The position numbers were made by a program, and so were the translations under genes. The notes beneath the pieces were generated by a model. The model searched no databases, was not told the origin of the DNA, and saw only the letters and a program-made list of their open reading frames with translations. DNA of 40,544 bases from Verrucomicrobiota bacterium (GTDB lineage: Bacteria > Verrucomicrobiota > Verrucomicrobiia > Limisphaerales > UBA9464), in NCBI GenBank assembly GCA_029865985.1, contig JARXAF010000130.1, positions 1 to 40,544 on the forward strand, read 5' to 3'. Below are positions 3,683 through 27,495 of this stretch, one piece after another (position 1 is the stretch's first letter; every line of letters begins with the position of its first letter).

Positions 3683-3795
3683 GCGGGATAGGTCCGGAGC
3701 GAGCATAGGAACGTCGACATCCTGATCGCCCTCGCGCGAAAGCGCGAAAGCTCCCCCTGTCCCAACGTTCCCTGCGAGCGCAGGACCTATCCCGC
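3683..3795 (+). repeat. 113-nt structured interspersed repeat, copy A
   Basis: The outer stem GCGGGATAGGTCC (3683-3695) pairs perfectly over 13 bp with GGACCTATCCCGC (3783-3795). The middle stem is GGAACGT (3708-3714) with ACGTTCC (3765-3771). The inner hairpin is CGCGC-GAAA-GCGCG (3733-3746), extendable by one T-A pair. A small CCTGC-GAGC-GCAGG hairpin at 3771-3784 competes with the outer stem. It lies between the divergent genes moeA and rpsO. Copies B, C and E have the same layout and length. Confidence 0.85.
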
Positions 3796-3865
3796 AGAGC
3801 CCCACCGACAACGCAATCCGCTGATTCCCAAAAAACGACCCTCCTAGAGTAAGAAAACTCCGGGC

Positions 3866-3894
3866 TTGCCCCATTTACCGCAGCCCCTTAGCTT
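3866..3894 (+). promoter_or_regulatory. Candidate sigma-70-type promoter of rpsO
   Basis: A TTGCCC box (3866-3871), a 17-nt spacer and TAGCTT (3889-3894) end 60 nt before the rpsO ATG. The candidate in front of secA has the same TAGCTT -10 box and the same 17-nt spacing, which raises confidence in both. No transcript data are available. Confidence 0.5.
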
Positions 3895-3954
3895 GGGGAT
3901 TCAAGATAAACGGAATCGCTTACTGGGAGGCATCAAGCTTCCCGACACCGAATC

Positions 3955-4212
3955 ATGTCTGAAAAAAATAAAACCATCGCGGAACACCGCATCCACGCAA
4001 AAGACACCGGTTCTGCCGATGTCCAGATTGCCCTTCTCACTGAGAAGATTAACTCCCTGACGGAGCATCTTCAGAAGAACAAGAAGGATCATAGCAGCCG
4101 TCGTGGTATGTTGCTCATGGTGGGCAAACGCCGCAGCTTGCTCGATTATCTGAACCGCACGGATTCGGCCCGTTACCAAGCGCTGACCAAGAAGCTGAAG
4201 CTCCGGAAGTAA
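3955..4212 (+). CDS. rpsO: 30S ribosomal protein S15
   Basis: Protein of 85 aa, close to the family's usual 88-89. It binds 16S rRNA in the central domain of the small subunit. Typical S15 features are visible: the [22 protein letters not shown] segment in the first 35 residues, the [23 protein letters not shown] core with the conserved HxxRRG(L/M) motif, and [24 protein letters not shown] at the end. It is followed by an intrinsic terminator and then pnp, the conserved rpsO-pnp order seen in many bacteria. Confidence 0.98.
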
Positions 4213-4223
4213 TTTTTTGCGAC

Positions 4224-4250
4224 GCCGGGCCTCCAGCCCGGTTTTCGCTT
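4224..4250 (+). terminator. Intrinsic terminator or attenuator after rpsO
   Basis: Stem CCGGGC (4225-4230), loop CTCCA, stem GCCCGG (4236-4241), then TTTTCGCTTT. It starts 13 nt after the rpsO stop. The broken T tract suggests partial read-through into pnp. Confidence 0.65.
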
Positions 4251-4512
4251 TAGGAGACCCTGCAGGCCACGATTGCCGCGACCACAGGGTTGTCCGGATT
4301 GTCCAAAGCGGACAATTGCGGGTGCCGCGCCCATTCGACGCGCGCGCAAAGTCACCCGCACCAAAAACCCAAAGACGCGTCAAAGAAGTTAAAAAGAAAC
4401 GCCCGGTCCGCCCGGGAAATTTCACTCGCTCTCCACTAACAAACCTTCCTCATCAAGAAAGGTTCGCTGAAGATCGAGTGAAGTTCCTCAGGGCGGTCGG
4501 GCAACTGCTAGT
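4251..4512 (+). promoter_or_regulatory. pnp leader region with a hairpin
   Basis: There is no gene here. A 7-bp hairpin ATTGTCC-AAAGC-GGACAAT sits at 4298-4316, in the middle of the gap between rpsO and pnp. In other bacteria PNPase represses its own mRNA through a leader hairpin processed by RNase III; whether this hairpin plays that role is inference. Confidence 0.35.
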
Positions 4513-7179
4513 ATGTCCCATACCGTTCAAATCCCCGTCGGTGGTCAATTCATCACCATCGAAACCGGCCGCTTTGCAAAGCAGGCCGACGGCGCCGTGA
4601 CCGTTCAACTCGGTGAAACCATCATCCTCACCGCAGCCGTTGCGGCCTCCAAGGCCAAGCCCGGTCAGGATTTCTTCCCCCTCACCGTGGATTACCGCGA
4701 GAAGGCAGCGGCCGCTGGCCGTTACCCCGGCGGTTACTTCAAGCGTGAAGGTCGTCCCTCCGAAAAGGAGATCCTCACCTGCCGCCTGACCGATCGCCCC
4801 ATCCGCCCGCTCTTCCCCAAGGGCTGGTACAATGAGGTTCAGGTCCAATCGCTGTTGCTCTCGGCCGACGGCCAGAACGATGCCGACATCCTCTCCATCC
4901 TCGGAGCCTCGGCTGCGTTGACCGTTTCCGACATTCCTTGGGACGGCCCGCTCGGCGCTGTCCGTATCGCCCGCGTCGCCGGTGAGTTCGTGGTGAACCC
5001 CACGCATGAGCAGCAGGCCCAGTCCGACCTCGACCTGATTTACGTCGGCAACAAGACCGACGTCGTCATGTACGAGGGCGCCGCCAACGAAATCTCCGAG
5101 GCCGATTTCATCGCCGCCCTGAAGTTCGCCCAGGCCGCCTGCCAACCCTTGATCGCCGCCCAGGAAGAACTGGCCGCCAAGGCCGGCAAGACCAAGCGCG
5201 CCATCACGGTGACCATCGTGCCGGAAGAAATCCTCACCGCCGCCAAGACCCTGGCCGGTGACCGCATCATCCCGGCCCTCCTCACCCCGCAGAAGCTGGC
5301 CCGCGAAGCCGCCGTCAACGCCATCTTCGCCGAAGTCGGCCAGAAGCTCGTCGCCCAATTCGGCGCCGACAAGGTGACCGAATTCGTCATCAAGGACGCC
5401 CAGTACTACATCCAGAAGGAAGCGGTCCGCAGCCTCGTGCTCGACCACTCCAAGCGTTTGGATGGCCGTGACTTCGACGCCATCCGCGCCCTGTCCAGCG
5501 AAGTGGGCTTCCTGCCCCGCGCCCACGGTTCGGCCGTGTTCGCCCGCGGCGAGACCCAAGCCGTCTGCTTGGCCACCTTGGGCACCAGCGACGACATCCA
5601 GCAGTTCGACTCCTACACCGGAGGCGAGACCAAGAAGCAGTTCCTGCTGCACTACAACTTCCCGAACTTCTCCGTCGGTGAGACGGGCCGCATCACCGGC
5701 CCCGGCCGTCGCGAAATCGGCCACGGAGCCCTCGCCGAGCGCAGTGTGCGCCCGGTGATCCCCCTCAGCGAGTACCCTTACGCCGTCCGCATCACGGCGG
5801 AGATCATGGAATCCAACGGTTCCACCTCCATGGCGTCGGTCTGCGGTGCGACCCTGGCCCTCATGGATGCCGGCGTGCCCATCACCCGCCCGGTGGCTGG
5901 TATTTCCATCGGTATTTGCACCGAATACGGCGCTGATCATCAGATCTCCCGCTACAAGCTCCTCACCGACATCATCGGCTGGGAAGACGCGTTCTGCGAC
6001 ATGGACTGCAAGATCGCGGGCACCGACAAGGGCATCACCGGCTTCCAGCTGGATTTGAAGCTCAAGGGTATCCCGCTGCCGATCATGGAGCAGACCATCG
6101 AGAAGGCCCGCGTGGCCCGTGGCCAGATCCTGGCCCACATGCTCACCACGCTGCCGGCCCCGCGCTCCGACATCTCCAAGTACGCCCCGCGCATCGTCAC
6201 CCTGAAGATCAACCCCGAGAAGATCGGCGCGCTGATCGGGCCTGGCGGCAAGAACATCAAGCGCCTGGTCGAAGAGTCCGGTTGCGAAATCAACATCGAG
6301 GACGACGGAACCGTGAAGGTGTTCTCCGTGTCCCCGGAAGGCATGGAAATCGCCCGCCGCGAAATCGAAGCTCTGAGCGCCGAGATCGAAATCGGCAAGG
6401 TCTACAAGGGCCGCGTCGTGACCATCAAGGAATTCGGAGCCTTCATCGAAGTGTTCCCGGGTCAAGACGGCCTGGTCCATGTCAGCGAGCTGTCCAACAA
6501 GCGCGTCGCCCGCGTTGAAGACGTCATCAAGATGGGTGACGACATCTGGGTGAAGTGCATCGGCGTCGACGAAAAGGGCCGCGTGAAGCTCAGCCGCAAG
6601 GCCGCCATGGAAGAGCGTGGAGAAATCCCGCCCTCCACCGGTGCCCCCGAAGAGGGAGCCCCTGCAGCCACCGAAGGCGAGGCCCGTCCGGAGCGCGCTG
6701 AGCGCCCCGAGCGTGGCGGTGATCGCGGTGGAGACCGTGGTCCTCGCGGCGGTGATCGCGGCGGCCGTGGTGAGCGCGGTGGAGATCGCGGCGCTCGGTC
6801 AGATCGCGGTGAGCGCGGTGGTCGTCGTAGCGACGCCCCGGCTGGCGGCGAAGGCGAAACCTCAGGCGAGCCTTTGGAAGTCGGCAAGGTCTATCGGGCC
6901 AAGGTCGTGACCATCAAAGACTTCGGTGCCTTCGTGGAGTTCCTCCCGGGCCGCGAAGGTCTGGTGCACGTCAGCGAGCTGGCCAACTTCCGCGTCAAGC
7001 AGGTCGAAGACATCGTCCAACTCGGTGACGAGATCTGGGTGAAGCTCCTCGGCCAAGACGAGAAGGGCCGCGTCCGTCTCAGCCGCAAGGCTGCCATGGA
7101 AGAGCGGGAAAAGGCCTCCTCGGGCGACGCGCCTGCAGCCGAGTCCACCGATGGTGGCAGTGCTCCGGCTCAGGAGTAA
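4513..7179 (+). CDS. pnp: Polynucleotide phosphorylase with two S1 domains
   Basis: Protein of 888 aa, against about 700 for ordinary bacterial PNPase, a phosphorolytic 3'-5' exoribonuclease. It has two RNase PH domains (about 10-230 and 310-550). The second keeps the catalytic aspartates in CDMDCKIAG and FQLDLKL. A KH domain follows (about 557-617, GPGGKNIK loop near 575-582), then an S1 domain (about 625-705). The odd part comes next: a linker of about 55 residues rich in Arg, Gly and Asp (about 724-778, many RGGDRG-like units), then a second S1 domain (about 788-866) very similar to the first. Both S1 domains carry [17 protein letters not shown], [14 protein letters not shown]. The reading frame is continuous and ends in front of a strong terminator, so this is a real extension. 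Confidence 0.97.
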
Positions 7180-7200
7180 TCCTTCCCAAGGTATTTCAAA

Positions 7201-7234
7201 GGCGCCTGCGGCAACGCAGGCGCCTTTTTCTTTT
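7201..7234 (+). terminator. Strong intrinsic terminator of pnp
   Basis: A perfect 10-bp stem GGCGCCTGCG (7201-7210) / CGCAGGCGCC (7215-7224) with a GCAA tetraloop, followed by TTTTTCTTTT. It lies 21 nt after the pnp stop. Confidence 0.95.
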
Positions 7235-7323
7235 AAACAACCCGAGGCAAGCGGAACCGTCCTCAGACCCCATCACACCTTGATAAAACAGCCAAAACAA
7301 CGGTCGCACGCCAAGAATCCGCC

Positions 7324-7656
7324 TCACTTCGACGAGACACCCTGGAAACCCATCTGCGCCACGGCCAGCAACCGACGGCCAGAAACCCGCAACCCCAACG
7401 AATCCCGCCAGAACACACGGCGGCGGCGGGCCGGATCATGCAAGTCGGCGATGGCCAGCTTCACTTGTTCCGGGCGCGTGGCATTGAGGGCGTCCTCCAC
7501 CACACTCACATCCTGGGCAAAGGCCTTGGGATGGACAGCACGCGCGAAGCGGTACAACGGTCGTTTCCATGGATAAACACACTCCAGCAGTGCCCAAGCC
7601 CCCACCTCGGCGGGCTCACAAGCACGCAAGACGGCCAGTCGGTGGCGCAAGGTCAT
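7324..7656 (-). CDS. Conserved-looking small hypothetical protein
   Basis: Not recognised. From the ATG at 7656 the product is 110 aa, basic, with no signal peptide or membrane segment. It starts MTLRHRLAVLRACEPAEVG and includes LLECVYPWKRPLYRFARAVHP and a C-terminal RRRVFWRDSLGLRVSGRRLLAV. The frame extends upstream to a GTG at 7785 (153 aa), but that extension runs through a cluster of inverted repeats and has a less protein-like composition, so the ATG was chosen. It lies downstream of the efflux-adaptor gene on the same strand, about 205 nt away. Codon use looks like the neighbours, but there is no family evidence. Confidence 0.5.
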   Translation of the reverse strand: MTLRHRLAVLRACEPAEVGAWALLECVYPWKRPLYRFARAVHPKAFAQDVSVVEDALNATRPEQVKLAIADLHDPARRRRVFWRDSLGLRVSGRRLLAVAQMGFQGVSSK

Positions 7657-7749
7657 GGATACAGCCGGACTCACGGTGTAACAGGGGGATCCCTGAGAAG
7701 GCCTTGAAGGCCATGGTCTGGTCAACCTGTTTCTGAGCAGATGTCGGAG

Positions 7750-7806
7750 CAGACTGTCTGACTCGAAGTCAGATCGAACCGCCACCCCATTTTCAGGAAG
7801 ATGGGG
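7750..7806. repeat. Cluster of three inverted repeats
   Basis: CAGAC-T-GTCTG (7750-7760) overlaps TCTGACT-CGA-AGTCAGA (7757-7773), followed by CCCCAT...ATGGGG (7785-7806). They lie between the adaptor gene and the small gene downstream of it. There is no T tract on either strand, so these are not typical intrinsic terminators. They could be protein-binding sites or transcript-end structures. Confidence 0.4.
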
Positions 7807-7861
7807 ATATGCCGGCGGTAAGGGAAACCCGCCAGCAATGGATCCCGAACGCCGTCCCGGC

Positions 7862-8956
7862 TTATTGCTGGTACGGTGCGGCCGATTCCGGGCCCGACAA
7901 CTTCAGCGGAGCGCCTGGGAAAATCTTCTTCACCCCCTCGACCACCACTTTCTCGCCCGGCTCGACACCACTCAGCACCTCCGCCTTGCCGGCCAGGCGC
8001 AACCCCAAGCGCACCGGCCGCAACACGGCCTGGTTTTGCGGGCCGACCACAAAGACCGTGTTGGTATCACCGTTGGCGATTACCGCCGGCTCTGGGATGA
8101 CCAGTGCGGATTCCCGAAGTCGCACCGAAAGATCCAACTGGGCCAGCATGCCGCCCCGAAGGCGTGTTTCCGGATTGGCCACCCGAGCCTTGACCAAGGC
8201 GGTGCGTGTACCCGGGTCCAATTGCGGTGAAATGAAGTAGACCTCCCCGGTGAAGCGCTCCTGCGGGTAGGCATCCACCCGGAAGTCCACCTTCTGACCA
8301 TTGCGAACCTGACCCAGAAACCGCTCCGGCAGGCTCAACTCCACCTTCATCACCGACAAATCCACGAGCGTGGTCAGCGGGGTATTCCGCGAAATCACTT
8401 GTCCCGGACTGACCTGGCGCGATCCGGTGGTACCGGCAAAGGGAGCCACGATACGCGCGTCTTTGAGCAACCGGCGGCGCAGCTCAACGGCGCTCTGGTT
8501 CACCCGGAACGTCGCGGCCGCCTGATCGAACTCCTGCTGGGCGATGAGTTTATCGCGGAACATCTGCTGGGCGCGGTCGAAATTGGCCCGGCTCAATTCC
8601 AGTGATGCCTCGGATTCTTGAAGCGACGTCTGGAACTTCGACTGATCCAAAGCCACGAGCAACGCACCCGCCTCGACCGACTGGCCCTCGGAGAACCCAA
8701 TCGTTTGCACCACGCCATCGGTCTCGGACTTGATTTCCACCGACTCGTTGGCGGTGACGGTTCCCACGAGTGAGACCACTTCGGCCACAGCCTGACGGCG
8801 TGCCTCAATCGCCACCACTTGGAAAGCCATACCTCCGCCCCCGCCCTTACCCGCAACCGCGCCGGGCGCTTCAGCCGGCTTGCAACCCATCGCCATCCAA
8901 CCAGTCGCCAAGGCCAGAGCAGTGCCGGAGATCAGGGGTTGAACAAATCGCTTCAT
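7862..8956 (-). CDS. RND-type efflux periplasmic adaptor (MFP family)
   Basis: Protein of 364 aa from the ATG at 8956, chosen because it opens directly into a signal sequence (MKRFVQPLISGTALALATGW) ending in a near-lipobox AMGC with Cys25. This makes it a probable lipoprotein anchored in the periplasm. The order is that of HlyD/MexA adaptors: a lipoyl half (GTVTANESVEIKSETDGVV, then EGQSVEAGALLVALD), an alpha hairpin with QESEASLELSRANFDRAQ...EFDQAAATF, the second lipoyl half (IVAPFAGTTGSRQVSPGQVI), and a beta barrel (VELSLPERFLGQVRNGQKVDF...GEVYFISPQLDPGTRTALVKA). These proteins bridge an inner-membrane pump to an outer-membrane channel. No pump or TolC-like gene lies beside it: rtcR is upstream and a small unknown gene downstream. 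Confidence 0.9.
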   Translation of the reverse strand: MKRFVQPLISGTALALATGWMAMGCKPAEAPGAVAGKGGGGGMAFQVVAIEARRQAVAEVVSLVGTVTANESVEIKSETDGVVQTIGFSEGQSVEAGALLVALDQSKFQTSLQESEASLELSRANFDRAQQMFRDKLIAQQEFDQAAATFRVNQSAVELRRRLLKDARIVAPFAGTTGSRQVSPGQVISRNTPLTTLVDLSVMKVELSLPERFLGQVRNGQKVDFRVDAYPQERFTGEVYFISPQLDPGTRTALVKARVANPETRLRGGMLAQLDLSVRLRESALVIPEPAVIANGDTNTVFVVGPQNQAVLRPVRLGLRLAGKAEVLSGVEPGEKVVVEGVKKIFPGAPLKLSGPESAAPYQQ

Positions 8957-9006
8957 GCAGGTTTGGGTAACCTGCCCGGGCTGGGGAATTCCGCGCCAGA
9001 GCAAAG

Positions 9007-10617
9007 TCAGGGCGTGCTCTCGGAACAGTCCTTCCAACTCAAACCGAACCGAGCCAGATACTTGCTCAGACGGTCGGCGTCATTCGCATGCTTCCGGGCC
9101 AGTCGGGAGACGCTGAAGAGCCGACGCCCCGCCTCCGACTGACTCTTCGATTCGCGGCAGACCCGGATCACCTCAGCGAGTTGCACCCGGTCGAAGGGAT
9201 CGATCGCCGCCCATCGCTCGGGCCCCAGCAGCGGATCGGACGCACTGCCGCCGTCCAACTCCGTCCCAAGGCCGGCCCAAGCGGCACGGAGGCGGGCCGA
9301 CTCCTCGTCCACAACCTTCCCGGTGATGCGACCGCCCTCGGCCAAGGTGGCCATGCGGGTGACCGCCGCGTTGAGATCGCGGAAATTGGCGCTCCACCGC
9401 GCCTCGGACGACTGGGCGAAGGCGAGGAATCGGTCACGGGCCTCCGTGCTCAGGGTCACTCGGGTACCGTGTCGACGCACATACTGCTCGAGTTCATAGT
9501 CGAGGTTGGGCTCCAGATCCTCGGGGCGATCCCGCAAGCCGGGCAGGCGGAAGGTCCACAAATTCAGGCGGGCGAGAAGGTCTTCGCGGAAAAGCCCTTC
9601 ACGCACCCGCGAGTGCAAGTCGCGGTTGGTTCCCGCGATCAACTGGAAGTCGCTGGAGACATCCTGATCGCCTCCGAAGGGCGGGAACCGTTTGCTCTCG
9701 AGGGCGCGCAAGAGCAGGGCCTGCTCGTCGAGACCGAGTTCTCCCACTTCGTCGAGGAAGAGCAAACCGCCATCGGCCGAACGCAACAGCCCGAGACGAT
9801 CCTTCAGGGCTCCGGTGAAGGCACCTTTCACGTGGCCGAACAGCGCGCTCATCGCCGCGTCACCCCGCAAGGTGGCGCAATTCACCTCCACGAACGTCCC
9901 GGTCAACCGGTGTCGTGACCGCTTGAGCTCATAGATGCGCCGAGCCAACTGGGACTTGCCGGCACCAGTGGGCCCCATGAGGAGCACCGGATCGCGCGAC
10001 TGCACGGCGACTTGCTCGATCTGCTCGATCAAGCGGTTGAACCCCCCATTGCGGGTCTCGATGCCCGACTTGAGGAAGCTCCGGGCCTCGCTGGCCTCCT
10101 TGCGGAACCGGGCCGCGATCCGGTCGTAGCGCGACAAGTCGAGATCGATGATGTTGGCAACCCCCAACGGTGACTTCGATTTCGACTGCCGTTCCTTCGG
10201 CGAGGTCTGGACCAACCGGCCTGGCAAATGCCGGCTCTCCGTCAGCAGAAAGAGGCAAATTTGCTGCACATGGGTCCCGGTGGTGATGTGGACGAGGTAG
10301 TCTTCTTGGTCCGGGTCGAACCGGTAACCGCGGGCGAACTCGTGCAAGGCACCGAACACCTCCTCGAAATCCCAAGGATCGCGGAGGGCCTGACGGTGCA
10401 GACGGACCTCAGTGCCCGGGGAGACCCGGGCGATATCGGCAGCCACGCAGCGGGCAACGTCTTCGTGGGGGGCTTGATGCAGCAACTCGAAGCGGCTCAC
10501 CGCCAGGTCATCCTGCTGGCAGAGCGAGACACTCGGACGCCACTTGCGCCAACGCTCGGTGTGGAACCCCGAATCGAGCACGCTGCCCAGAATGCCGAGA
10601 ACGACCGTCTTTTTCAT
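9007..10617 (-). CDS. rtcR: Sigma-54-dependent RNA-repair activator RtcR
   Basis: Protein of 536 aa from the ATG at 10617, where MKKTVVLGILGSVLD matches the usual RtcR start. The first 180 or so residues form the RtcR N-terminal CARF-type sensory domain (DDLAVSRFELLHQ, VHITTGTHVQQICLFLLTES). A sigma-54 AAA+ domain follows: Walker A GPTGAGKS at 215-222, the sigma-54 contact loop GAFTGA at 265-270, and Walker B LLFLDE at 285-290. The C-terminal segment (DRVQLAEVIRVC...SQSEAGRRLFSVSR) is the expected helix-turn-helix region. In E. coli, RtcR activates rtcBA after RNA damage. Here it is divergent from rtcA-rtcB, and a fitting sigma-54 promoter lies between them. Confidence 0.95.
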   Translation of the reverse strand: MKKTVVLGILGSVLDSGFHTERWRKWRPSVSLCQQDDLAVSRFELLHQAPHEDVARCVAADIARVSPGTEVRLHRQALRDPWDFEEVFGALHEFARGYRFDPDQEDYLVHITTGTHVQQICLFLLTESRHLPGRLVQTSPKERQSKSKSPLGVANIIDLDLSRYDRIAARFRKEASEARSFLKSGIETRNGGFNRLIEQIEQVAVQSRDPVLLMGPTGAGKSQLARRIYELKRSRHRLTGTFVEVNCATLRGDAAMSALFGHVKGAFTGALKDRLGLLRSADGGLLFLDEVGELGLDEQALLLRALESKRFPPFGGDQDVSSDFQLIAGTNRDLHSRVREGLFREDLLARLNLWTFRLPGLRDRPEDLEPNLDYELEQYVRRHGTRVTLSTEARDRFLAFAQSSEARWSANFRDLNAAVTRMATLAEGGRITGKVVDEESARLRAAWAGLGTELDGGSASDPLLGPERWAAIDPFDRVQLAEVIRVCRESKSQSEAGRRLFSVSRLARKHANDADRLSKYLARFGLSWKDCSESTP

Positions 10618-10842
10618 GGGAGGATGGATGGGATGGCGCGATCGCCCACGAAGACGCCGGACCACCGCCGATCACCTCGGAGTCTGAGGATGTGGTTCTC
10701 TTTTTGGCAAATGTGTTCGCTTTACCGCGAGTTATTGAAACCCACGGAAATCGAAATTCTTTGAAAAACCGCGGATTTCACACCTTTTTGACCTCTGGCA
10801 CGCCCCCTGCATTACGGTTCCCAGAAAGGACAAGTCACGGAC
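10618..10842. promoter_or_regulatory. Divergent rtcR/rtcA control region
   Basis: A 225-nt spacer that is more AT-rich around 10690-10790 than its surroundings. RtcR binding sites would be expected here, upstream of the sigma-54 promoter. The stretch 10725-10785 holds several GAAA/TTTC words but no inverted repeat clear enough to name as an operator. No rtcR promoter could be assigned. Confidence 0.45.
10796..10812 (+). promoter_or_regulatory. Sigma-54 (-24/-12) promoter of rtcA-rtcB
   Basis: TGGCACGCCCCCTGCAT matches the TGGCACG-N4-TTGCA consensus except for one T of the -12 box. The GG (10797-10798) and GC (10809-10810) are 12 nt apart, as required. Predicted initiation near 10821 leaves a leader of about 22 nt containing AAGGA before the rtcA ATG at 10843. 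Confidence 0.85.
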
Positions 10843-11919
10843 ATGACGCTCACCTCACACACGACCAACACCCCGGAAATGGCACCCGCCTGCATCACAC
10901 TCGACGGTTCCCAAGGTGAAGGCGGCGGGCAGATTCTGCGATCGGCCTTGGCGCTGAGCCTCATCACCGGCCGGGCATTCCGCATCCACCGAATTCGGGC
11001 CGGACGTTCCAAACCGGGACTCATGCGCCAGCACCTGGCCTGCGTCGAGGCCGCGGTCCGCATCGGATCGGCCACCGCGGAAGGGGCGGCCTTGGGTTCC
11101 CAGGAATTGACGTTCACTCCGGGCCCCCTCGTGACCGGCACCCATGAATTCCGGATCGCCAACTCGGGCAGCACGATGTTGCTCCTGCAATCGATCCTGC
11201 CGGCGCTGCTGCTGGCGCGGCAACCGAGCGACCTGGTGCTGGAGGGCGGGACACACAACCCTTTTGCGCCGCCATTCCCCTTCATCGAACAGGCGTTCCT
11301 GCCGCTCCTGCGAAGGATCGGATTCGACGTAACCGCCACGCTCGATCGTCCCGGCTTCCACCCCAACGGCGGCGGCCGATGCCGTGTCTCCATCCGGCCT
11401 GCCGGTGACCTCAAGCCACTCCGATTGGGAGACATGCGCACCCCGGGTGCCCCACCCGCGGCCTGGGCCCGCATCTGCCTGGCCGGCCTACCCCGCCAGG
11501 TCGCACAACGGGAGGCCGAGACCCTGCGGCGACGGATCGCTCTGGACCCCGAACAGTGCATGATCAACGAACATGCCGAGGCCCTCGGCCCCGGAAACAC
11601 CGTGCACGTTTTCACGGCTGGCGACGGTTTCGCCAACGTGTTCACCGGCTTCGGATCCCCGCGGGTCCGTGCCGAGCAAGTCGCTGGCGACGCCCTCGCG
11701 TCCGCCGAAGCCTTCATCGCCAGCGGGGCCTCGGTCGACGAGCACCTCGCCGACCAACTGCTGCTACCGCTGGCCATCGGCCGCGGAGGCAGCTTCACCA
11801 CCACCGCACCCAGCAACCACACCCGCACTCAATCCCTCATCCTCCAAGAGTTCCTCACGATCACCGTGACCACCGAACCGATCGCTCCCACCGTCTGGCG
11901 GGTGCAGGTCGGAACCTGA
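10843..11919 (+). CDS. rtcA: RNA 3'-terminal phosphate cyclase RtcA
   Basis: Protein of 358 aa that converts RNA 3'-phosphate ends to 2',3'-cyclic phosphates using ATP. The family signatures are clear: DGSQGEGGGQILRSALALS near residues 25-43, the RAGRSKPGL and NSGSTMLLLQSILPALL segments, GGTHNPFAPPFPFIE, and HPNGGGRC. The region VDEHLADQLLLPLAI is followed by PSNHTRTQ, whose His (about residue 326) aligns by context with the adenylylated histidine of E. coli RtcA. The start at 10843 fits the short leader predicted from the sigma-54 promoter; a later ATG at 10879 is possible and would lose only a variable N-terminus. rtcB follows 15 nt after the stop, so the two form an operon in the order rtcA-rtcB. 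Confidence 0.96.
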   Translation: MTLTSHTTNTPEMAPACITLDGSQGEGGGQILRSALALSLITGRAFRIHRIRAGRSKPGLMRQHLACVEAAVRIGSATAEGAALGSQELTFTPGPLVTGTHEFRIANSGSTMLLLQSILPALLLARQPSDLVLEGGTHNPFAPPFPFIEQAFLPLLRRIGFDVTATLDRPGFHPNGGGRCRVSIRPAGDLKPLRLGDMRTPGAPPAAWARICLAGLPRQVAQREAETLRRRIALDPEQCMINEHAEALGPGNTVHVFTAGDGFANVFTGFGSPRVRAEQVAGDALASAEAFIASGASVDEHLADQLLLPLAIGRGGSFTTTAPSNHTRTQSLILQEFLTITVTTEPIAPTVWRVQVGT

Positions 11920-11934
11920 TCCAATTCCGATTCC

Positions 11935-13362
11935 ATGAACGAAAAACACCTCATCAAGATGGGCGTGCCGCCGGGCGAGCCGGTCCGCGCGGCGCTGACC
12001 TTCATTTCCCGATACTGCCTCGCCGGCAACGACAAGCAGCGGATCCCCGAAGCCGTCGAGACGGTGCTGCGGGATCCTGCGGCGCACGCCGGTGACGATC
12101 TCCGGAGCGAGTTCGCACGAGCCCTCCTGGCTGTGCCCACGACCTTCGTCCCCGGCCAAGCGCCTTGGCGTCAATGGGGCCAAGACCTCGAGGCACAGGC
12201 CCTGGCCCAAATGGCCCGAGCCTGTGAGCTGCCCATCTCAGTGGCCGGTGCCCTGATGCCCGACGCCCATGTCGGCTACGGCCTGCCCATCGGTGGCGTC
12301 CTGGCGACCCGAGGTGCCGTCATCCCCTACGCCGTCGGCGTAGACATCGCCTGCCGCATGAAGCTCACGGTCCTCGATTGGCCCGCATCGGCGCTGACCG
12401 AGCGGCACGAAGAACTGGTCCGCGCCATCGAAGCCGAGACCCGATTCGGTGTCGGGGCAACCTTCAAGAACCGCCGCGAACACGGGGTCTTGGACGCCGA
12501 TTGGACCGTCAGTCCGACAACACGCAAGAACCGCGATCGTGCCTGGGCCCAACTCGGAACCAGCGGCAGCGGGAACCACTTCGTTGAGTTTGGAACGCTC
12601 CAGGTCTTGCCGCAGTCCCATCACAACTCCCCGAACCCCGCTGATCCGGCACCCCTGGCCCTGCCCCCGGGCGAATACCTGGCCCTGCTGTCCCACAGCG
12701 GAAGCCGAGGCACCGGCGCGGCCGTCTGCGATCACTACAGCAAGCTCGCCATGGCCATGCACCCGGAGTTGCCCAAGGACTACCAACGGCTCGCCTGGCT
12801 CGACCTCGATTCCGTAGGCCAGGAATACTGGTCGGCCATGGAGCTCATGGGCCGTTACGCCGCGGCCAACCACGAACTCATCCACCGCCACATCGCCCGT
12901 CACCTCGGTGCCGAGGTGCTCCTGGACATCGAAAACCACCACAACTTCGCCTGGAAGGAACGGCACGTTATCGACGGCGTCCCCCACGACGTGGTGGTCC
13001 ACCGCAAAGGCGCCACGCCCGCGCATGCCGGCGTCTTGGGAATCATCCCCGGCTCCATGGCCACCCCCGGATTCATCGTCCGCGGCAAGGGCGGCGACGG
13101 GTCGCTCGGGTCGGCCTCCCACGGCGCGGGGCGGGTCATGAGCCGCACCAAGGCCGAAGCCACCTTCGACTGGAGCACCGTCAACCCCATCCTGCGCGAG
13201 CGGAACGTCCGACTCCTGTCTGCCGGTATCGATGAAGTGCCCATGGTCTACAAAGACATCCACCAAGTCATGGCCGCGCAAACCGATCTCGTCGAAGTCT
13301 TGGCCGAATTCATGCCCCGCCTCGTGAAAATGGCCCCGAGCGGAGAACGCCCGGAGGATTGA
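11935..13362 (+). CDS. rtcB: RNA-splicing ligase RtcB
   Basis: Protein of 475 aa, a GTP- and Mn-dependent ligase joining 2',3'-cyclic phosphate (or 3'-phosphate) and 5'-OH RNA ends. Diagnostic motifs are in order: PDAHVGYGLPIGGV; GVDIACRM with the metal-binding Cys140; LGTSGSGNHFVEF; SHSGSRGTG; ENHHNFAWKE; HRKGATPA; GSMATPGFIVRGKG; and SASHGAGRVMSR, in which His396 is the expected GMP-accepting residue. The protein ends in the usual AGIDEVPMVYKDI...VEVLAEFMPRLVKMA. A stretch of about 20 residues rich in Pro, Asn and His (around 225-245) is a likely surface loop. It is co-transcribed with rtcA under RtcR control (inference from layout and promoter). Confidence 0.97.
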   Translation: MNEKHLIKMGVPPGEPVRAALTFISRYCLAGNDKQRIPEAVETVLRDPAAHAGDDLRSEFARALLAVPTTFVPGQAPWRQWGQDLEAQALAQMARACELPISVAGALMPDAHVGYGLPIGGVLATRGAVIPYAVGVDIACRMKLTVLDWPASALTERHEELVRAIEAETRFGVGATFKNRREHGVLDADWTVSPTTRKNRDRAWAQLGTSGSGNHFVEFGTLQVLPQSHHNSPNPADPAPLALPPGEYLALLSHSGSRGTGAAVCDHYSKLAMAMHPELPKDYQRLAWLDLDSVGQEYWSAMELMGRYAAANHELIHRHIARHLGAEVLLDIENHHNFAWKERHVIDGVPHDVVVHRKGATPAHAGVLGIIPGSMATPGFIVRGKGGDGSLGSASHGAGRVMSRTKAEATFDWSTVNPILRERNVRLLSAGIDEVPMVYKDIHQVMAAQTDLVEVLAEFMPRLVKMAPSGERPED

Positions 13363-13407
13363 GCCCAACGGTTGATCCCGCTGCCCAAACACCCAACCCC
13401 AGGCGTA

Positions 13408-13520
13408 GCGGGATCGGTCCGAAGCGAGCATAGGAACGTCCTCACCCTATTCCCCCTCGCGCGCCAGCGCGAAAGCCCAGCCTGTCCCCACGTTCCCTGC
13501 GAGCGCAGGACCGGTCCCGC
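13408..13520 (+). repeat. 113-nt structured interspersed repeat, copy B
   Basis: Outer arms GCGGGATCGGTCC (13408-13420) and GGACCGGTCCCGC (13508-13520) pair at 12 of 13 positions plus one G-T wobble. The middle stem is GGAACGT (13433-13439) / ACGTTCC (13490-13496). The inner hairpin is CGCGC-GCCA-GCGCG (13458-13471). It starts 45 nt after the rtcB stop. Confidence 0.85.
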
Positions 13521-13545
13521 GGAGCCCCTACAAAAGCCGCCAAAT

Positions 13546-13589
13546 AGTAAAGAGTGACCCTTTTTGTGTAAATAGGAGGGACCGACCCC
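13546..13589. repeat. Short interspersed module, copy 1
   Basis: The module AGTAAAGAGTGACC, CTTTTTGTGTA, GAGGGACCGACCCC begins 25 nt after structured repeat copy B. Related modules occur at 21931-21972, 22091-22133 and 40274-40320. In six-frame translation it produces a recurring spurious HKKGH peptide on the minus strand. Confidence 0.7.
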
Positions 13590-13627
13590 TTGCCGACCCC
13601 TTGCGAAGATCGCCCCGGTCAAAGCCT

Positions 13628-13656
13628 TTGACGCTGGGGGTGGGGTTACTTAGCTT
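13628..13656 (+). promoter_or_regulatory. Candidate sigma-70-type promoter of secA
   Basis: TTGACG (13628-13633), a 17-nt spacer and TAGCTT (13651-13656), ending 25 nt before the secA ATG. The -10 box and spacing are the same as in the rpsO candidate. Confidence 0.6.
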
Positions 13657-13681
13657 GCACGTTCTTTAACTTGAGACACCC

Positions 13682-16735
<3,054 letters not shown>

Positions 16736-16884
16736 GGTGAGGAGGAGCGGGGCGTGGGGCGAACCTGAACCCCCAATCCCGATCAAACTACCGCGCACTT
16801 CGAAAGGGGCTCCAAATCGGTCTGTGAAGCCATCCAAGAAACGGCGTCCGATCGCGATCTCGGTTCACTGACCCCGTTTTTCGC

Positions 16885-20166: not shown

Positions 20167-20203
20167 GACCTCGCGGCACAACGAGAAATACAACCGCCAC
20201 CCC

Positions 20204-20428
20204 GATCCCCGGCCCAGGCCGCCTGAGTGCGGCGGGCATTTTCGGTAAGAGACAAGGCGGATCGAGGGTCGTGTACCCTCTGATCCCCGGCCCAGGCCGC
20301 CTGAGTGCGGCGAGGCATTCTCGGCAGGGACAAGGCGGATCGGGGGGCGTGTACCCCTTGCGGTACTCGACCCCCGATCCAACGCAGTAGCTGCCGAAAA
20401 GGCCCGCCGCACTCAGACGGCCTGAGAG
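20204..20428. repeat. Two direct and one inverted copy of a 78-bp repeat
   Basis: Unit 1 (20204-20281) and unit 2 (20282-20359) both start GATCCCCGGCCCAGGCCG and differ at a handful of positions. An inverted third unit (about 20362-20428) is related to them. Its end supplies the last codons and the TGA stop of the flavoprotein gene on the minus strand. Confidence 0.85.
20337..20380. terminator. Long hairpin, possible bidirectional terminator
   Basis: Arms 20337-20355 and 20362-20380 pair at 17 of 19 positions around a 6-nt loop, and the stem can be extended outward by the flanking repeat units. It lies between two converging genes. There is no T tract, so a role in ending transcription is inference. 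Confidence 0.5.
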
Positions 20429-21600: not shown

Positions 21601-21758
21601 TGCATGGACGGCCAATTACGCCGAACACCAATGAAAGCCCAACGCAGCCCATGAAGGCCAACCCGGAGTTCGCCCCAAACTACCTCACCAACGCAGGCGA
21701 TGCACGGCAGCCTCTGGTATAAAGGTTAACATTTTCACCGCAGAAACCTTGGGCGGCA

Positions 21759-21871
21759 GCGGAACGGGTCCGAAGTGAGCACTGGAACGTCGACATCCTG
21801 ATCCCCCTCGCGCCCCAGCGCGAAAGTTCCTCCTGGCCCAACGTTCCCTGCGAACGTAGGACCCATTCCGC
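21759..21871 (+). repeat. 113-nt structured interspersed repeat, copy C
   Basis: Outer arms GCGGAACGGGTCC (21759-21771) and GGACCCATTCCGC (21859-21871) pair at 12 of 13 positions. The middle stem is GGAACGT (21784-21790) / ACGTTCC (21841-21847). The inner hairpin is CGCGC-CCCA-GCGCG (21809-21822). It lies between the divergent flavoprotein and ABC-transporter genes. Confidence 0.85.
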
Positions 21872-21930
21872 CGAGCCCTCAGGGCACTGTCACCGGGCGC
21901 CAGCCTCCCCAAGCCAGGCAGCAATTTTAT

Positions 21931-21972
21931 GATAGTATGGCACTTTTTGTGTAGATGTGAGGGACCGACCCC
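21931..21972. repeat. Short interspersed module, copy 2
   Basis: GATAGTATGGCAC, TTTTTGTGTA, GAGGGACCGACCCC, about 60 nt after structured repeat copy C. It shares its layout with the modules at 13546 and 40274. Confidence 0.7.
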
Positions 21973-22036
21973 GAGGGTTCTGGAAGCGAACACCAAAAAA
22001 TACCGGCGCGCAGCGCAATGGTGGATGCTTCAGAGC

Positions 22037-22064
22037 TTCCCTGCGAGCGGAGGCCCCATCCCGC
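22037..22064 (+). repeat. Truncated copy D of the 113-nt repeat
   Basis: Only the 3' part is clear: TTCCCTGCGAGCGGA followed by the arm GGCCCCATCCCGC (22052-22064). A degenerate GCGCGCAGCGC at about 22002-22016 may be the remnant of the inner hairpin. The 5' arm is missing. Confidence 0.6.
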
Positions 22065-22090
22065 GGAGCCCTCCAAGAACATGCAAAGTT

Positions 22091-22133
22091 GATGATGGAA
22101 TGGCTCTTTTCGTGTCACTGCGAGGGACAGGCC
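22091..22133. repeat. Short interspersed module, degenerate copy 3
   Basis: GATGATGGAATGGCTC, TTTTCGTGTCA, GCGAGGGACAGGCC. It matches the other modules with several substitutions and again follows a copy (here truncated) of the structured repeat. Confidence 0.5.
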
Positions 22134-22207
22134 ACGTGCCTCGTACTGGGCGCTCCTTCATGTAATTCGCTTGAGAAACCCCGGGGACACCCGCTAATCG
22201 CAGAACG

Positions 22208-24603: not shown

Positions 24604-24640
24604 CGCTCCAACCGCAAGGCCCAAGGACCCTCCGGCCTGC

Positions 24641-25669
24641 TCAGACCTTCGGAGCGGAGATCAGCGCCAAGCGACCGTCCCGACATCCGGCCATCACCCA
24701 GGCATCGCCCGGCAACCAACCCAAGACTGTGACGGCGGACGACAACACGGTAGCCCGCAATGGCTGCGAAGACTTGCCTGCGTTCCAGAACAGCACTCGG
24801 CCACCCAGGCAACCGCTGGCCAGAAGGTGTCCCGCCTTCTGGTAGGAGAGGCAAGAGACTCGGGTCGGATGACCCTCGAGGATACGCGGCGTGGAACCCG
24901 CCGGCCCCTTGCCGCTGCAATCCCACACCATGGGTTCCTGGCCGCCGTCGGTGGCGAGGTATCGCCCGGAATGATGCCAGGCCAGGCTGCGTACTTTGGC
25001 TTCATAGCCCGACATGGCCAACTCTTCGCCCTCACGGAAGGGCTGCGGCCAGATTTGCACACTGTTTTCCTGAGTGCCGGCGACGACCCAACGGCCATCC
25101 GGTGAAATCGCCAGCGACACCAAACTCGTCTTCCAAGGCAACTCAGCGGTGACGCGCCCCGTGTCCGCGTCGTACACACTCACCCCGCCGTAGCAGCCCA
25201 CGGCCAGGGATCGTCCGTCGGCCGACCAGGCCAACCCGGCGATGGTGCTGCGATGGCCGCCCAATGTGTGGGTCCAACCGCTCCCGCCAGGACCCCCGAT
25301 GCACACCGTCTTGCCGGAGGCGGCCGCCCACCGATCGCCCACCGGCGATGCGGTCAATTGCTCCACCCAGGCCGAGGGCATGGGCAACGATTCGGTCTGG
25401 GTTCCAGTCAAGGCATTCCAGAGGCGAACCTGACCATCCTGACCTGCCGTGGCAAACGAGGTGCCCGAAGGCCCCCAGACTAGGCGAAATCCCCCGCCCT
25501 CATGGGCCTGAAATGTGTGGAGTCGACGCCCGGTCGACGCCTCCACCACCCAGGCAGAACCCTCGGTACCCAGGGCCGCGATGAGTCTTCCATCCGGCGA
25601 GCCTGCCAAGGCGACGATGGGTTCGTTGAGATCGAGGACCCATTCGGCGGGTCGGAGCGGAGCGTTCAT
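24641..25669 (-). CDS. WD40-repeat protein
   Basis: Protein of 342 aa from the ATG at 25669. It has about seven WD40-like blades, seen as repeating units such as LAGSPDGRLIAALGTEGSAWVVEASTG, WGPSGTSFATAGQDGQVRLWNALTG, LAWSADGRSLAVGCYGGVSVYDADTG, LAISPDGRWVVAGTQENSVQIW, LAWHHSGRYLATDGG..MVWD and LSYQKAGHLLASGCLGGRVLFWN. The expected product is a closed propeller used as a protein-interaction platform. No signal peptide was seen. The start is 40 nt downstream of the CobW-type gene on the same strand, so the two are probably co-transcribed. A start further upstream at 25738 would overlap that gene. Function is unknown; a role with the GTPase is inference. Confidence 0.88.
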   Translation of the reverse strand: MNAPLRPAEWVLDLNEPIVALAGSPDGRLIAALGTEGSAWVVEASTGRRLHTFQAHEGGGFRLVWGPSGTSFATAGQDGQVRLWNALTGTQTESLPMPSAWVEQLTASPVGDRWAAASGKTVCIGGPGGSGWTHTLGGHRSTIAGLAWSADGRSLAVGCYGGVSVYDADTGRVTAELPWKTSLVSLAISPDGRWVVAGTQENSVQIWPQPFREGEELAMSGYEAKVRSLAWHHSGRYLATDGGQEPMVWDCSGKGPAGSTPRILEGHPTRVSCLSYQKAGHLLASGCLGGRVLFWNAGKSSQPLRATVLSSAVTVLGWLPGDAWVMAGCRDGRLALISAPKV

Positions 25670-25709
25670 CTCGAGGTCGGTGCAACAGACTCGGTTGGAG
25701 GGGCAACTC

Positions 25710-27224
25710 TCAGGCCAGGCAGCGACGGAAGCCGGCATTCAGAGCCTCACGGTCCAAATTGCGACCGATGAAAACCAACTGGCTCTTGCGCTCGAGGGCG
25801 TCTTTCCACGCCCGGTCAGGCTTGCCCTCGAAGAGCATGTGAACTCCCTGGAACACGAAGCGGTTGGCCTGTCCCTTGATGTTGAGGATGCCCTTCATGC
25901 GGAAGATGTCCTGACCCTTGGTCTGAAGCAGTTCGCTCAGCCACGCGTTGAGCTTCTTGGCGTCCAGTTCCCGACGCTCTTCGATACCCACACTGGAGAC
26001 GGTCTCGTCGTGGGTGTGGTTGTGACCATGGCCGCCATGCTCATGAACATGAGTGGGCTCGACCGTCTTGCCGTCGCGTTCGATGCGTCCCTTGAACTCG
26101 TCCAACCCATGCTGGGTGAAGAGGGCGTAGTTACCGTGGGCGGGAATGCGCAAAGTGGCGGTGATGCCGTCCTCGCCGAGAATGAGTTTGTAGAGCGTCT
26201 TGCCGGGCTTGATCACTCCGCCCATGCGGACGGCCGTTCCGATGCCATTGAAGACTCCTTCGGCGATTTCCTCGGCATGGTGCAATGCGTCGTGCAGCCC
26301 ACCCCCGCACTCCTCACCGTGGCCGTGGCTGTGCCCGTGATCATGGTCATGGTCATGGCCGTGGTCATGGCCGTGGCCGTGATCGTCATGAGTGTGGTCG
26401 TGACCATGCTCGGCATGGGAATGATCGTGGCCGTGGCCCTGCTCGTGACTATGGGTATCCAATTGGAGCAGCACGGCGCCCATCACGGCATCCGGGCCCG
26501 CGTCGAGACGCAGAGTGTAATCGCCTGCATCGAGATGAAGTGTGCCGCTCCACTCAAAGGGCAGCGCTTTCTCCAAGAAATCCCCGTCCAAGGTGAGCTT
26601 GTGGTTCAGATCAAAAGCATGCAGGTGGATGACCTGATCCACCGAGAGGTTGGATTGTTGGGTATGCAGAATCTTGGCAACCGGGTTGATGGCCAGAACC
26701 TGACGTTCGAGGTGAGCCAACTCCTCGGGCGTCACGAGGTCGGTCTTGTTGAGGACGATGCGGTCAGCGAAGGCGATTTGCGCCTTGGCCTCGGGCGCGT
26801 CGTGGAGGTGCAGGGAGATGTGCTTGGCGTCGACAAGCGTGACGATGCCATCGAGACGGAAGTTATCCTTGATCTCTTCGTCGCTGAAGAAGGTCTGAGC
26901 GACCGGGCCGGGATCCGCCAGGCCGGTGGTTTCGACCAGCACGTAGTCGAACCTGTTCCGGCGCTTCATGAGCTGGCCGAGGATGCGAATCAGGTCGCCG
27001 CGGACGGTGCAGCAAAGGCACCCATTGTTCATTTCGAAGATTTCTTCGTCGGCCTGGATAACGAGTTCGTTGTCGATGCCGATCTCACCGAACTCGTTCT
27101 CGATCACGGCGATGCGCTTGCCGTGATTGGCGGTCAGGATGCGGTTCAACAAGGTGGTCTTGCCGGCGCCAAGAAAGCCCGTGAGGACGGTCACCGGAAT
27201 GCGCGAGTCGTTGTGTTCGGCCAT
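25710..27224 (-). CDS. CobW/COG0523 GTPase with His-rich metal-binding insert
   Basis: Protein of 504 aa from the ATG at 27224, where MAEHNDSRIPVTVLTGFLGAGKTT is the usual family start. The P-loop GFLGAGKT is at 16-23, the metal-binding GCLCC motif at 68-72, ETTGLADP near 99-105, and the NKTD guanine-specificity motif at 159-162. A very His-rich insert lies at 258-303 (about 20 His in 46 residues, mostly HGHDH units) with a second cluster at 391-406. The CobW C-terminal domain ends ERKSQLVFIGRNLDREAL. COG0523 proteins are G3E GTPases that act as metallochaperones; His-rich members usually handle zinc, nickel or cobalt. The length is well above the usual 320-400 because of the insert. A WD40 gene follows closely. 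Confidence 0.93.
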   Translation of the reverse strand: MAEHNDSRIPVTVLTGFLGAGKTTLLNRILTANHGKRIAVIENEFGEIGIDNELVIQADEEIFEMNNGCLCCTVRGDLIRILGQLMKRRNRFDYVLVETTGLADPGPVAQTFFSDEEIKDNFRLDGIVTLVDAKHISLHLHDAPEAKAQIAFADRIVLNKTDLVTPEELAHLERQVLAINPVAKILHTQQSNLSVDQVIHLHAFDLNHKLTLDGDFLEKALPFEWSGTLHLDAGDYTLRLDAGPDAVMGAVLLQLDTHSHEQGHGHDHSHAEHGHDHTHDDHGHGHDHGHDHDHDHGHSHGHGEECGGGLHDALHHAEEIAEGVFNGIGTAVRMGGVIKPGKTLYKLILGEDGITATLRIPAHGNYALFTQHGLDEFKGRIERDGKTVEPTHVHEHGGHGHNHTHDETVSSVGIEERRELDAKKLNAWLSELLQTKGQDIFRMKGILNIKGQANRFVFQGVHMLFEGKPDRAWKDALERKSQLVFIGRNLDREALNAGFRRCLA

Positions 27225-27338
27225 AGCGTTCCTCCACCTTGCTGGAAGGTTCTCCCCATGGCAAATCCGGCGGTGGTCAGGTTCGAGTTCAATTGGGGCT
27301 TCCGAGGGCCGATCCGGAGGCCGCAGCCGAATCGAACC

Positions 27339-27360
27339 GGAGGACTGATCCTGCGCCCCC
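27339..27360 (+). repeat. 22-bp partial copy of the 113-nt repeat's 3' end
   Basis: The 22 bp are identical to 27480-27501, the right arm of copy E and its flank. It lies 44 nt upstream of copy E's left arm and could compete with the right arm for pairing. Confidence 0.7.
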
Positions 27361-27382
27361 CACCCCCACAACCCTAACACCA

Positions 27383-27495
27383 GCAGGATCAGGCCGGAGC
27401 AAGCACTGGAACGTGAACTCCCTCACCCCCTCGCGCGTTCAGCGCGAAAGCCCAGCCTGTCCCCACGTTCCCTGCGAGCGGAGGACTGATCCTGC
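27383..27495 (+). repeat. 113-nt structured interspersed repeat, copy E
   Basis: Outer arms GCAGGATCAGGCC (27383-27395) and GGACTGATCCTGC (27483-27495) pair at 12 of 13 positions. The middle stem is GGAACGT (27408-27414) / ACGTTCC (27465-27471). The inner hairpin is CGCGC-GTTCA-GCGCG (27432-27446), with a 5-nt loop. It ends 8 nt from the stop codon of the metalloprotease gene and lies upstream of the CobW-type gene, both on the minus strand. Confidence 0.85.

What the first reader, a model, noticed from the sequence alone, without database searches (positions are those of the whole stretch)
3683..27495. A 113-nt interspersed element with a covarying three-stem fold
Four full copies (3683-3795, 13408-13520, 21759-21871, 27383-27495) have exactly the same length between stem ends and the same orientation. 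The 13-bp outer stem differs between copies, yet each copy keeps 12 or 13 pairs (one of them a wobble in copy B). Outer-stem position 8 is A-T in copy A, C-G in B and E, and G-C in C. Position 5 is G-C or A-T, position 3 G-C or A-T, and position 9 G-C or A-T. The 7-bp middle stem GGAACGT/ACGTTCC is invariant and the inner stem TCGCGC/GCGCGA keeps its pairs while its loop changes (GAAA, GCCA, CCCA, GTTCA). Paired changes in the stem with free loops mean the folded form has been conserved, as RNA or as a DNA cruciform. All copies are intergenic, upstream or downstream of unrelated genes. It could be a mobile palindromic element moved by a distant transposase, or a family of small structured RNAs.
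Basis: partly seen in the sequence, partly recalled or inferred. Interest (0 to 1): 0.8.

Follow-up and report, generated by a model that had tools for sequence, protein, structure and literature searches.

The report
Mobile DNA hairpin oriented with replication
The four repeats are copies of a short DNA hairpin that has spread between genes in one genus of bacteria, nearly always pointing the same way relative to the strand skew of the chromosome; it behaves like a miniature mobile element and not like a gene for a small RNA.

Summary
In detail: four 113-nt copies at the stated places, one orientation, covarying arms. The family ("E") is large: 52 BLAST matches in the own genome; 13 of 19 genomes of the own genus (apparently freshwater Verrucomicrobiota) and 1 of 31 others in the family. 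The conserved unit is about 126 nt. Covariation is real (13 pairs with two-sided changes, 5.9 in shuffles) but looks DNA-borne: no G-U excess; orthologous copies differ as much as their flanks and change one arm at a time (54 one-sided, 1 compensated). Near-identical cores lie in unrelated flanks (36 of 119 pairs), and array sizes differ between 96-97% identical sites. New: E lies on the C-rich strand in 98 of 104 clusters (51 of 55 without orthologues). A second repeat, evidently the REP of a Y1 (RAYT) transposase, often lies 3' of E. Best reading: a REPIN-like non-autonomous element spreading as a single-stranded hairpin, probably by a Y1/HUH enzyme. The mover is unproven: four E-bearing genomes have no exact match to that REP and two of them no close full-length RAYT.

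The parts
3677..3802 (+). element E, copy A (core 3683-3795 plus conserved 6-nt and 7-nt ends)
13402..13527 (+). element E, copy B (core 13408-13520)
13541..13596 (+). second repeat ('D5', REP-like), 3' of copy B, same orientation
21753..21878 (+). element E, copy C (core 21759-21871)
21923..21976 (+). D5 repeat 3' of copy C
21980..22071 (+). truncated E copy fused to the preceding D5; absent from the about 95% identical sister genome G033
22087..22140 (+). diverged D5-like repeat (weak profile match, E 0.0037)
27377..27502 (+). element E, copy E (core 27383-27495), end sequences diverged
40271..40326 (+). D5 repeat without E nearby

Best explanation
E is a non-autonomous, intergenic, mobile DNA hairpin (about 126 nt) of one bacterial genus, apparently freshwater Verrucomicrobiota. 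SHOWN: it disperses (near-identical cores in unrelated flanks), multiplies into direct-repeat arrays and is lost; its arms covary between copies of the family; it lies on the strand that is poor in G over many kilobases; it is often followed by the REP repeat of a Y1 (RAYT) transposase gene. INFERRED: during replication one strand of E is exposed and folds; a Y1/HUH transposase of the RAYT kind cuts and joins this single-stranded hairpin, so only copies with matching arms spread; the conserved G.A/A.G internal mismatch (GCGAGC in both arms), which only the + strand could form as sheared pairs, would tell the strands apart, as the mismatch bulge does in E. coli REPs. After insertion a copy is not maintained and drifts; slippage through the hairpin gives arrays and deletions.
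For: Dispersal: of 119 copy pairs with at least 93% core identity and 300 nt of flank on each side, 36 have both flanks unrelated, 25 lie in one array or close by, and 58 are the rest, orthologous or partly alike; a looser earlier count, 105 of 236, includes array neighbours and some orthologues. Presence/absence at orthologous sites: at site E one, two or three copies, one reversed copy, or none; at site A one to three copies or none; arrays of 3/2, 4/2 and 6/2 units at 96-97% identical sites. Orientation: 79 of 79 neighbours within 1 kb and 31 of 34 adjacent clusters agree; a hand count over matches listed gave 30 to 6. Strand skew: 98 of 104 clusters negative in E's orientation, 51 of 55 without orthologues, 52 of 61 contigs using only sequence more than 5 kb from any E, and genes on both strands show it (92 of 98 and 69 of 85 cluster values). 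DNA and not RNA: GU 46, AC 60 in the outer plus GA helices; 54 one-sided and 1 compensated change over 34 orthologous pairs; arms 6.7% different, flanks 6.8-8.5%. Y1 link: D5 occurs in 9 of 50 family genomes, all in the genus, and these are exactly the 9 of the genus's 19 with a RAYT at least 74% identical to the own one (other genera were not searched for RAYT). In the own genome 14 of 23 assessable D5 copies have E just upstream in the same orientation. In 5 of 9 RAYT loci an E lies between two D5s upstream of the gene. Genomes with at least 15 E matches mostly have a full-length RAYT of at least 56% identity (11 of 12, against 1 of 7 others; Fisher p 0.0017, cut-offs set by me afterwards, not corrected for kinship, counts).
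Against: E is abundant in G034 (69 matches, the cap) and present in G027 (28), G021 (15) and G022 (5), which have no exact match to D5; G027 and G022 have no close full-length RAYT. G026 has a 56% RAYT and no E. No transposase gene was seen flanked on both sides by E. No clean insertion with a defined target site was seen: the closest case (97% identical flanks) is an internal deletion of E, and other sites have diverged spacers. The direction of the fork is not established: rpoB and L2 regions have skews of -0.039 to +0.031, while genes around E lie slightly more often on E's strand (66 against 38 clusters), which could mean either strand. Six clusters of 104 go against the skew rule. The pair counts are not independent: 10 of the 36 orthologous pairs come from five copies at one locus.
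Confidence: 0.68

Rival explanations
1. The covariation is mutational and not selected: DNA polymerase template switching within an imperfect palindrome copies one arm onto the other, so that arms stay matched without any need for a folded form.
For: Template switching is published as a source of multi-base compensatory changes in stems (PMC8794818; abstract and the start of the introduction seen). Middle-stem variants differ by several neighbouring bases at once.
Against: At orthologous loci 54 changes are one-sided and 4 two-sided, of which 1 keeps the pair, so the process is not frequent at resident copies; it explains neither dispersal nor orientation.
Confidence: 0.15
2. E is a family of small structured RNAs or RNA regulatory elements.
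For: Strong predicted fold on the + strand; covariation; more GU than AC in the middle stem alone (9 and 2); the downstream gene is on E's strand in 30 of 43 clusters with close genes on both sides.
Against: No GU excess in the outer and GA helices (46 GU, 60 AC) and the reverse in the inner stem (2 and 13); Rfam none at gathering score, one sub-threshold HgcC match on the minus strand of copy A, 19.1 bits against 50 needed, E 0.014, judged chance; no constraint relative to flanks; gain, loss and inversion at orthologous sites; window neighbours unrelated (MoeA, PNPase, RtcB, SecA, CobW and others).
Confidence: 0.06
3. E is a strand-polar chromosome-architecture signal (in the manner of KOPS or similar skewed motifs), kept oriented by selection and not by the way it inserts.
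For: 94% agreement with the local strand skew, which also holds away from E.
Against: Not found in 6 of 19 genomes of the genus at E <= 1e-6; copies not conserved relative to flanks; arrays and presence vary between close species; far longer than known polar motifs (recalled).
Confidence: 0.08
4. E is an attC-like recombination site of an integron-type array (long imperfect hairpin, direct-repeat arrays, one active strand).
For: Length, direct-repeat arrays and strand asymmetry resemble attC sites (recalled).
Against: The conserved ends (GCNGNA...GGAGCCC) carry no attC core-site consensus (GTTRRRY/RYYYAAC, recalled), read by eye from the consensus; distances between neighbouring copies within 200 nt are 22-32 or 78-192 nt, too short for ordinary cassette genes. 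The integrase was not searched for.
Confidence: 0.02

Closest known systems
REPINs / BIMEs with RAYT (TnpA-REP) transposases, e.g. Pseudomonas fluorescens GI-GIII REPINs (PMC3116915, passages seen)
   Same: Short non-autonomous intergenic hairpins in many copies, compensatory changes in the arms, direct tandem clusters, tandem REP arrays forward in one part and reverse in another part of the SBW25 chromosome, Y1 transposase gene nearby with cognate repeats.
   Different: E has no GTAG-type tag, its arms form one long helix with a conserved tandem G.A mismatch, and its own cognate RAYT is not identified; the RAYT-linked repeat is the separate D5.
ERIC, RIME and similar 100-130 nt palindromic intergenic repeats (recalled)
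   Same: Length, intergenic place, imperfect palindrome.
   Different: No sequence comparison was made; E shows strand-skew orientation and REP-linked arrays, which I do not recall for those families.
IS200/IS605 family insertion sequences (PMC6006769, passages seen)
   Same: Proposed mechanism: single-strand, strand-specific hairpin recognition linked to replication.
   Different: E carries no gene and consists of one hairpin.
TIRYT-associated TIR repeats (named in PMC3733652 and PMC6006769, passages seen)
   Same: Y1 transposases with long terminal inverted repeats instead of REPs, some with repeat families.
   Different: Not compared in sequence here.

Membership tests
REPIN/REP-RAYT system | High-copy, intergenic, hairpin-forming repeat | tested here: met
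   52 BLAST matches in the own genome, some partial; 67 with the covariance model, 69 being the most scored per genome; 0 of 171 distinct copies in called genes; folds
REPIN/REP-RAYT system | Conserved tetranucleotide (most often GTAG) before the palindrome | tested here: not met
   flank consensus over 224 copies is GCNGNA before and GGAGCCC after the core, no GTAG
REPIN/REP-RAYT system | Two REPs in inverted order, each a palindrome of its own | tested here: inconclusive
   the arms pair with each other over the whole length in the predicted folds; halves were not folded separately
REPIN/REP-RAYT system | Single-copy cognate RAYT gene next to copies of its own repeat | tested here: inconclusive
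   D5: a match upstream of the RAYT in 9 of 9 loci; E: 5 of 9; but E is abundant in G034 without an exact D5 match and present in G027, which lacks a close full-length RAYT
REPIN/REP-RAYT system | Repeat is cut and joined as ssDNA by the RAYT | not testable with these tools
   needs biochemistry
Structured RNA family | Match to a known Rfam family | tested here: not met
   0 at gathering score in the window; best sub-threshold match for copy A 19.1 of 50 bits
Structured RNA family | Stem changes kept by G-U pairs and by compensation at the same locus | tested here: not met
   GU 46, AC 60 in outer plus GA helices, p 0.21; 1 compensated, 54 one-sided at orthologous loci
Integron attC | Core sites and integron integrase | not tested
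   core-site consensus (recalled) only compared by eye; integrase not searched

The most novel reading that the evidence does not exclude
E is the first described member of a class of hairpin elements that are not REPINs: a single long helix with a built-in tandem sheared G.A mismatch as strand mark, copied at the replication fork by an as yet unknown HUH enzyme or by the replication machinery itself, and serving as a landing pad on whose 3' side a RAYT places its REPs, so that two mobile families build oriented mosaics together.
Probability: 0.2. Interest if true: 0.72.

Novelty: new variant of a known kind. Interest (0 to 1): 0.52.

Why it matters
How REP and REPIN repeats move is unsolved (PMC8266576, introduction). 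Here are two linked repeat families and a RAYT gene present in some species of one genus and not found in others, with orthologous sites that differ in copy number, and a 94% agreement with strand skew that links spread to replication. It also suggests that covariation among dispersed repeats need not mean an RNA or a maintained structure: the same stems are not visibly maintained at fixed loci. That is a caution for covariation-based discovery of RNA families.

Tried and rejected
Rfam: none at gathering score; one weak match in the permissive search of copy A rejected as chance. Plasmid and phage collections: no match to copy B; viral contigs: 0 exact pattern matches. Clean empty sites with target duplication: the best case (G000:C71 against G033:C6) proved to be an internal deletion; older sites have diverged spacers. 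Fork direction from rpoB and L2 in 14 regions of 7 genomes: skews too small to decide. Gene-orientation bias as the cause of the strand agreement: rejected, because genes on both strands carry the skew. Gene caller: my own codon-score method; it missed window 2361-3554, which Pfam shows to be MoeA. The D5 counts (38 of 42 with E upstream) come from loci fetched around E and are biased; the fairer figure is 14 of 23 from a whole-genome pattern scan (two more D5 copies lie at contig ends). The contigs for the strand-skew test were chosen by me from E matches listed, not all contigs. Alignment A2 used 53 of 56 representatives; I dropped 3 with shifted ends, and before that 7 fused, chimeric or end-shifted copies. 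The short-type middle stem is misaligned by one column in A2, which lowers, not raises, its covariation count. On re-checking the dispersal count was found inflated by array neighbours and diverged orthologues and is replaced by 36 of 119; two of the 36 orthologous pairs were array neighbours and are left out in the 54-to-1 count. These changes did not alter my odds.
Full report
OBSERVATION. The repeat finder joins them as one family of 145-nt copies and shows a fifth, partial copy near 22037. As + strand RNA all four fold better than all 200 shuffles (z -7.1, -5.2, -3.8, -4.2); the minus strands are weaker (z -6.0, -2.0, -4.2, -1.1; 0, 6, 0 and 24 of 200 shuffles as good). With DNA parameters the + strand gives z -5.3, -3.4, -2.9, -4.1 and the minus strand -4.9, -0.9, -3.2, -1.8.

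THE FAMILY. In the own genome (G000, 3.62 Mb, 216 contigs; the window is contig C42) copy B has 52 BLAST matches, some partial. An exact-pattern scan of one genome for each of 84,980 species gave 63 stretches, all in MAGs whose titles say Verrucomicrobia, Verrucomicrobiales or Akkermansia muciniphila, several from lakes or a pond. A covariance model from 53 copies matched 14 of 50 genomes of the taxonomic family at E <= 1e-6 with strict filters: 13 of 19 in the own genus, and 1 of 31 elsewhere, with one copy. At most 69 candidates per genome were scored, so counts of 67-69 are lower bounds. No match in plasmids or phages; 0 exact matches in viral contigs.

ANATOMY. Over 224 copies conservation ends 6 nt before and 7 nt after the 113 nt (GCNGNA and GGAGCCC; 0.5 to 1.8 bits inside, at most 0.55 in the next 23-24 positions). 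The helix is 13 bp, then an internal loop, GC, a conserved G.A/A.G double mismatch (GCGAGC in both arms; GA/GA in 113 of 142 distinct copies, AA/GA in 19), GC, the middle stem, a variable loop and a GC-rich inner hairpin. That these mismatches form sheared pairs is inference. On the 53-sequence alignment 93.3% of cells pair, 13 pairs have two-sided changes (5.9 in shuffles, 0 of 500 reach it), and sliding by 1-3 columns lowers pairing to 29-51%. The middle stem, invariant in the window, has at least five compensated versions in the family. Chimeric copies with unmatched 5' and 3' halves exist (L010, L068, L075).

DNA AND NOT RNA. If an RNA were selected, G-U pairs on its strand should outnumber A-C. 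In 142 distinct copies the outer plus G.A helices have 46 GU and 60 AC (p 0.21); the middle stem has 9 and 2, the inner 2 and 13. In orthologous copies (both 300-nt flanks alike; 36 pairs after two array neighbours are left out) the outer stem shows 54 one-sided changes and 4 two-sided changes, of which 1 keeps the pair. In the 36 pairs the arms differ by 6.7%, the inner part by 7.6%, flanks by 6.8-8.5%. Dispersed pairs with similar arm distance have relatively more compensated changes (1855 compensated to 9359 one-sided at 3-4 differences, 1 to 21 in orthologues). So pairing seems to be renewed when copies spread and to decay when they sit. This test is small, its pairs were chosen by flank similarity, and they are not independent (10 of the 36 come from five copies at one locus).

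MOBILITY. Of 119 pairs with core identity of at least 93% (183 copies with 300 nt on each side), 36 have unrelated flanks on both sides, 25 lie in one array or within 3 kb, and 58 are orthologous or partly alike. Few of the 36 (3) lie both in G000, by my list of its loci. At site E (between a CobW-like and a metallopeptidase-like gene) G000 and G033 have one forward copy, G034 one reversed copy, G024 and G028 one, G031 two, G023 three (the last four followed by D5), and G027, G022 and G021 none. At site A (MoeA/PNPase) there is one copy in the window and in G031, two in G028, G024, G034 and G029, three on G000:C65, none in G027, G021 and G022; the G031 and G024 contigs end close by. Sites with 96-97% identical flanks differ by 3/2, 4/2 and 6/2 units. 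All neighbour relations are direct: 94 of 94 within 200 nt and 79 of 79 within 1 kb in the larger set.

ORIENTATION. One search used 70 sequences (the window and 69 stretches or joined stretches) of 13 genomes, chosen from listed E matches; they hold 104 clusters. The DNA within 8 kb of E, leaving out 200 nt on either side, has fewer G than C on E's strand in 98 of 104 clusters; per genome 21 of 22 in G000, 15 of 18 in G034, 14 of 15 in G031, 7 of 8 in G019 and all in the other nine. Without orthologues it is 51 of 55. The effect is strongest near E (-0.12 at 150-500 nt, 91 of 103) and persists (77 of 97 at 7-10 kb; -0.056, 34 of 38 at 10-15 kb). Using only sequence more than 5 kb from any E, 52 of 61 contigs agree. 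Genes on E's strand (92 of 98 cluster values) and on the other (69 of 85) both show it, so it is a strand property, as replication produces. Adjacent clusters agree in 31 of 34 cases; a hand count over the matches listed gave 30 to 6. D5 follows the same rule (37 of 43 with E, 5 of 6 without). Which strand is the lagging one was not settled: rpoB and L2 regions had skews between -0.039 and +0.031, and genes near E lie somewhat more on E's strand (521 against 404 kb summed over clusters).

THE SECOND REPEAT. D5 (core TTTTGTGTAA....GGGACCGACCCC) lies mostly 18-70 nt, sometimes up to 200 nt, 3' of E in the same orientation. In a whole-genome scan G000 has 25 exact matches; by comparison with E positions and fetched surroundings 14 have E upstream, 9 have none, and 2 are at contig ends. 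D5 has exact matches in 9 of 50 family genomes, all in the genus: exactly the 9 of its 19 genomes with a RAYT at least 74% identical to the own one; the other ten have at most 62% or none (genus only). A D5 match stands upstream of that gene in all nine loci, and in five of them (G019, G023, G024, G028, G031) an E lies between two D5s. In two loci examined (G000, G019) the gene neighbours an ORF with a UvrD_C_2 helicase domain, which I read as RecD. The RAYT is a Y1_Tnp protein. Yet G034, G027, G021 and G022 carry E without an exact D5 match, and G027 and G022 lack a close full-length RAYT. So D5 belongs to this RAYT, and E's dependence on it is open. E plus D5 together also matched as one stretch at other places, for example G031:C31, G023:C396 and G028:C298, so at least some composites moved or were duplicated as units.

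MECHANISM. The best-supported picture is a REPIN-like element spread as a folded single strand near replication forks by a Y1/HUH enzyme. Published parallels: E. coli TnpA-REP needs a mismatch bulge and acts on REP but not its inverse (PMC8266576, introduction read); REPINs have compensatory changes and tandem clusters, and tandem REP arrays in SBW25 are forward near 2 Mb and reverse near 4 Mb (PMC3116915, passages read); IS200/IS605 elements use the lagging-strand template (PMC6006769, passages read). GTAG REPs are reported in Verrucomicrobia (O. terrae; PMC3733652, passages read). For E itself I saw no report in the listings of the searches, which cover only open-licence papers.

VERDICT. 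A real, well-formed family, best filed as a new variant of a known kind. The strand-skew orientation, the linkage to a RAYT's REP and the contrast between covariation across the family and decay at rest are the parts worth a specialist's time.

Noticed in passing
window 9007-13362: A block with RtcR (sigma-54 regulator), RtcA (RNA 3'-phosphate cyclase) and RtcB (RNA ligase) genes stands between two genes that lie close together in several congeners; E copy B lies at its 3' edge. Possible gene acquisition at an E site.
   Followed up: partly
G000 contig C65 (L173, L174) against window 19-14334: The MAG holds a second, 77-91% identical copy of much of this region, so it probably mixes two congeners.
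   Followed up: partly
window 20204-20424: 75-nt tandem repeat (84% alike) plus a 31-nt inverted repeat nearby.
   Followed up: no
window 26009-26446: Short tandem repeats within the CobW-like gene, probably a low-complexity protein stretch.
   Followed up: no
upstream flanks of several E copies (e.g. L045, L057, L058, L066; window about 3627-3640): Another REP-like motif (AGGGACAGGC or its complement) recurs 5' of E, perhaps the REP of a different RAYT.
   Followed up: no
loci L031-L093: Several contigs of the related MAGs end at or within E arrays, so assemblies probably undercount E.
   Followed up: no
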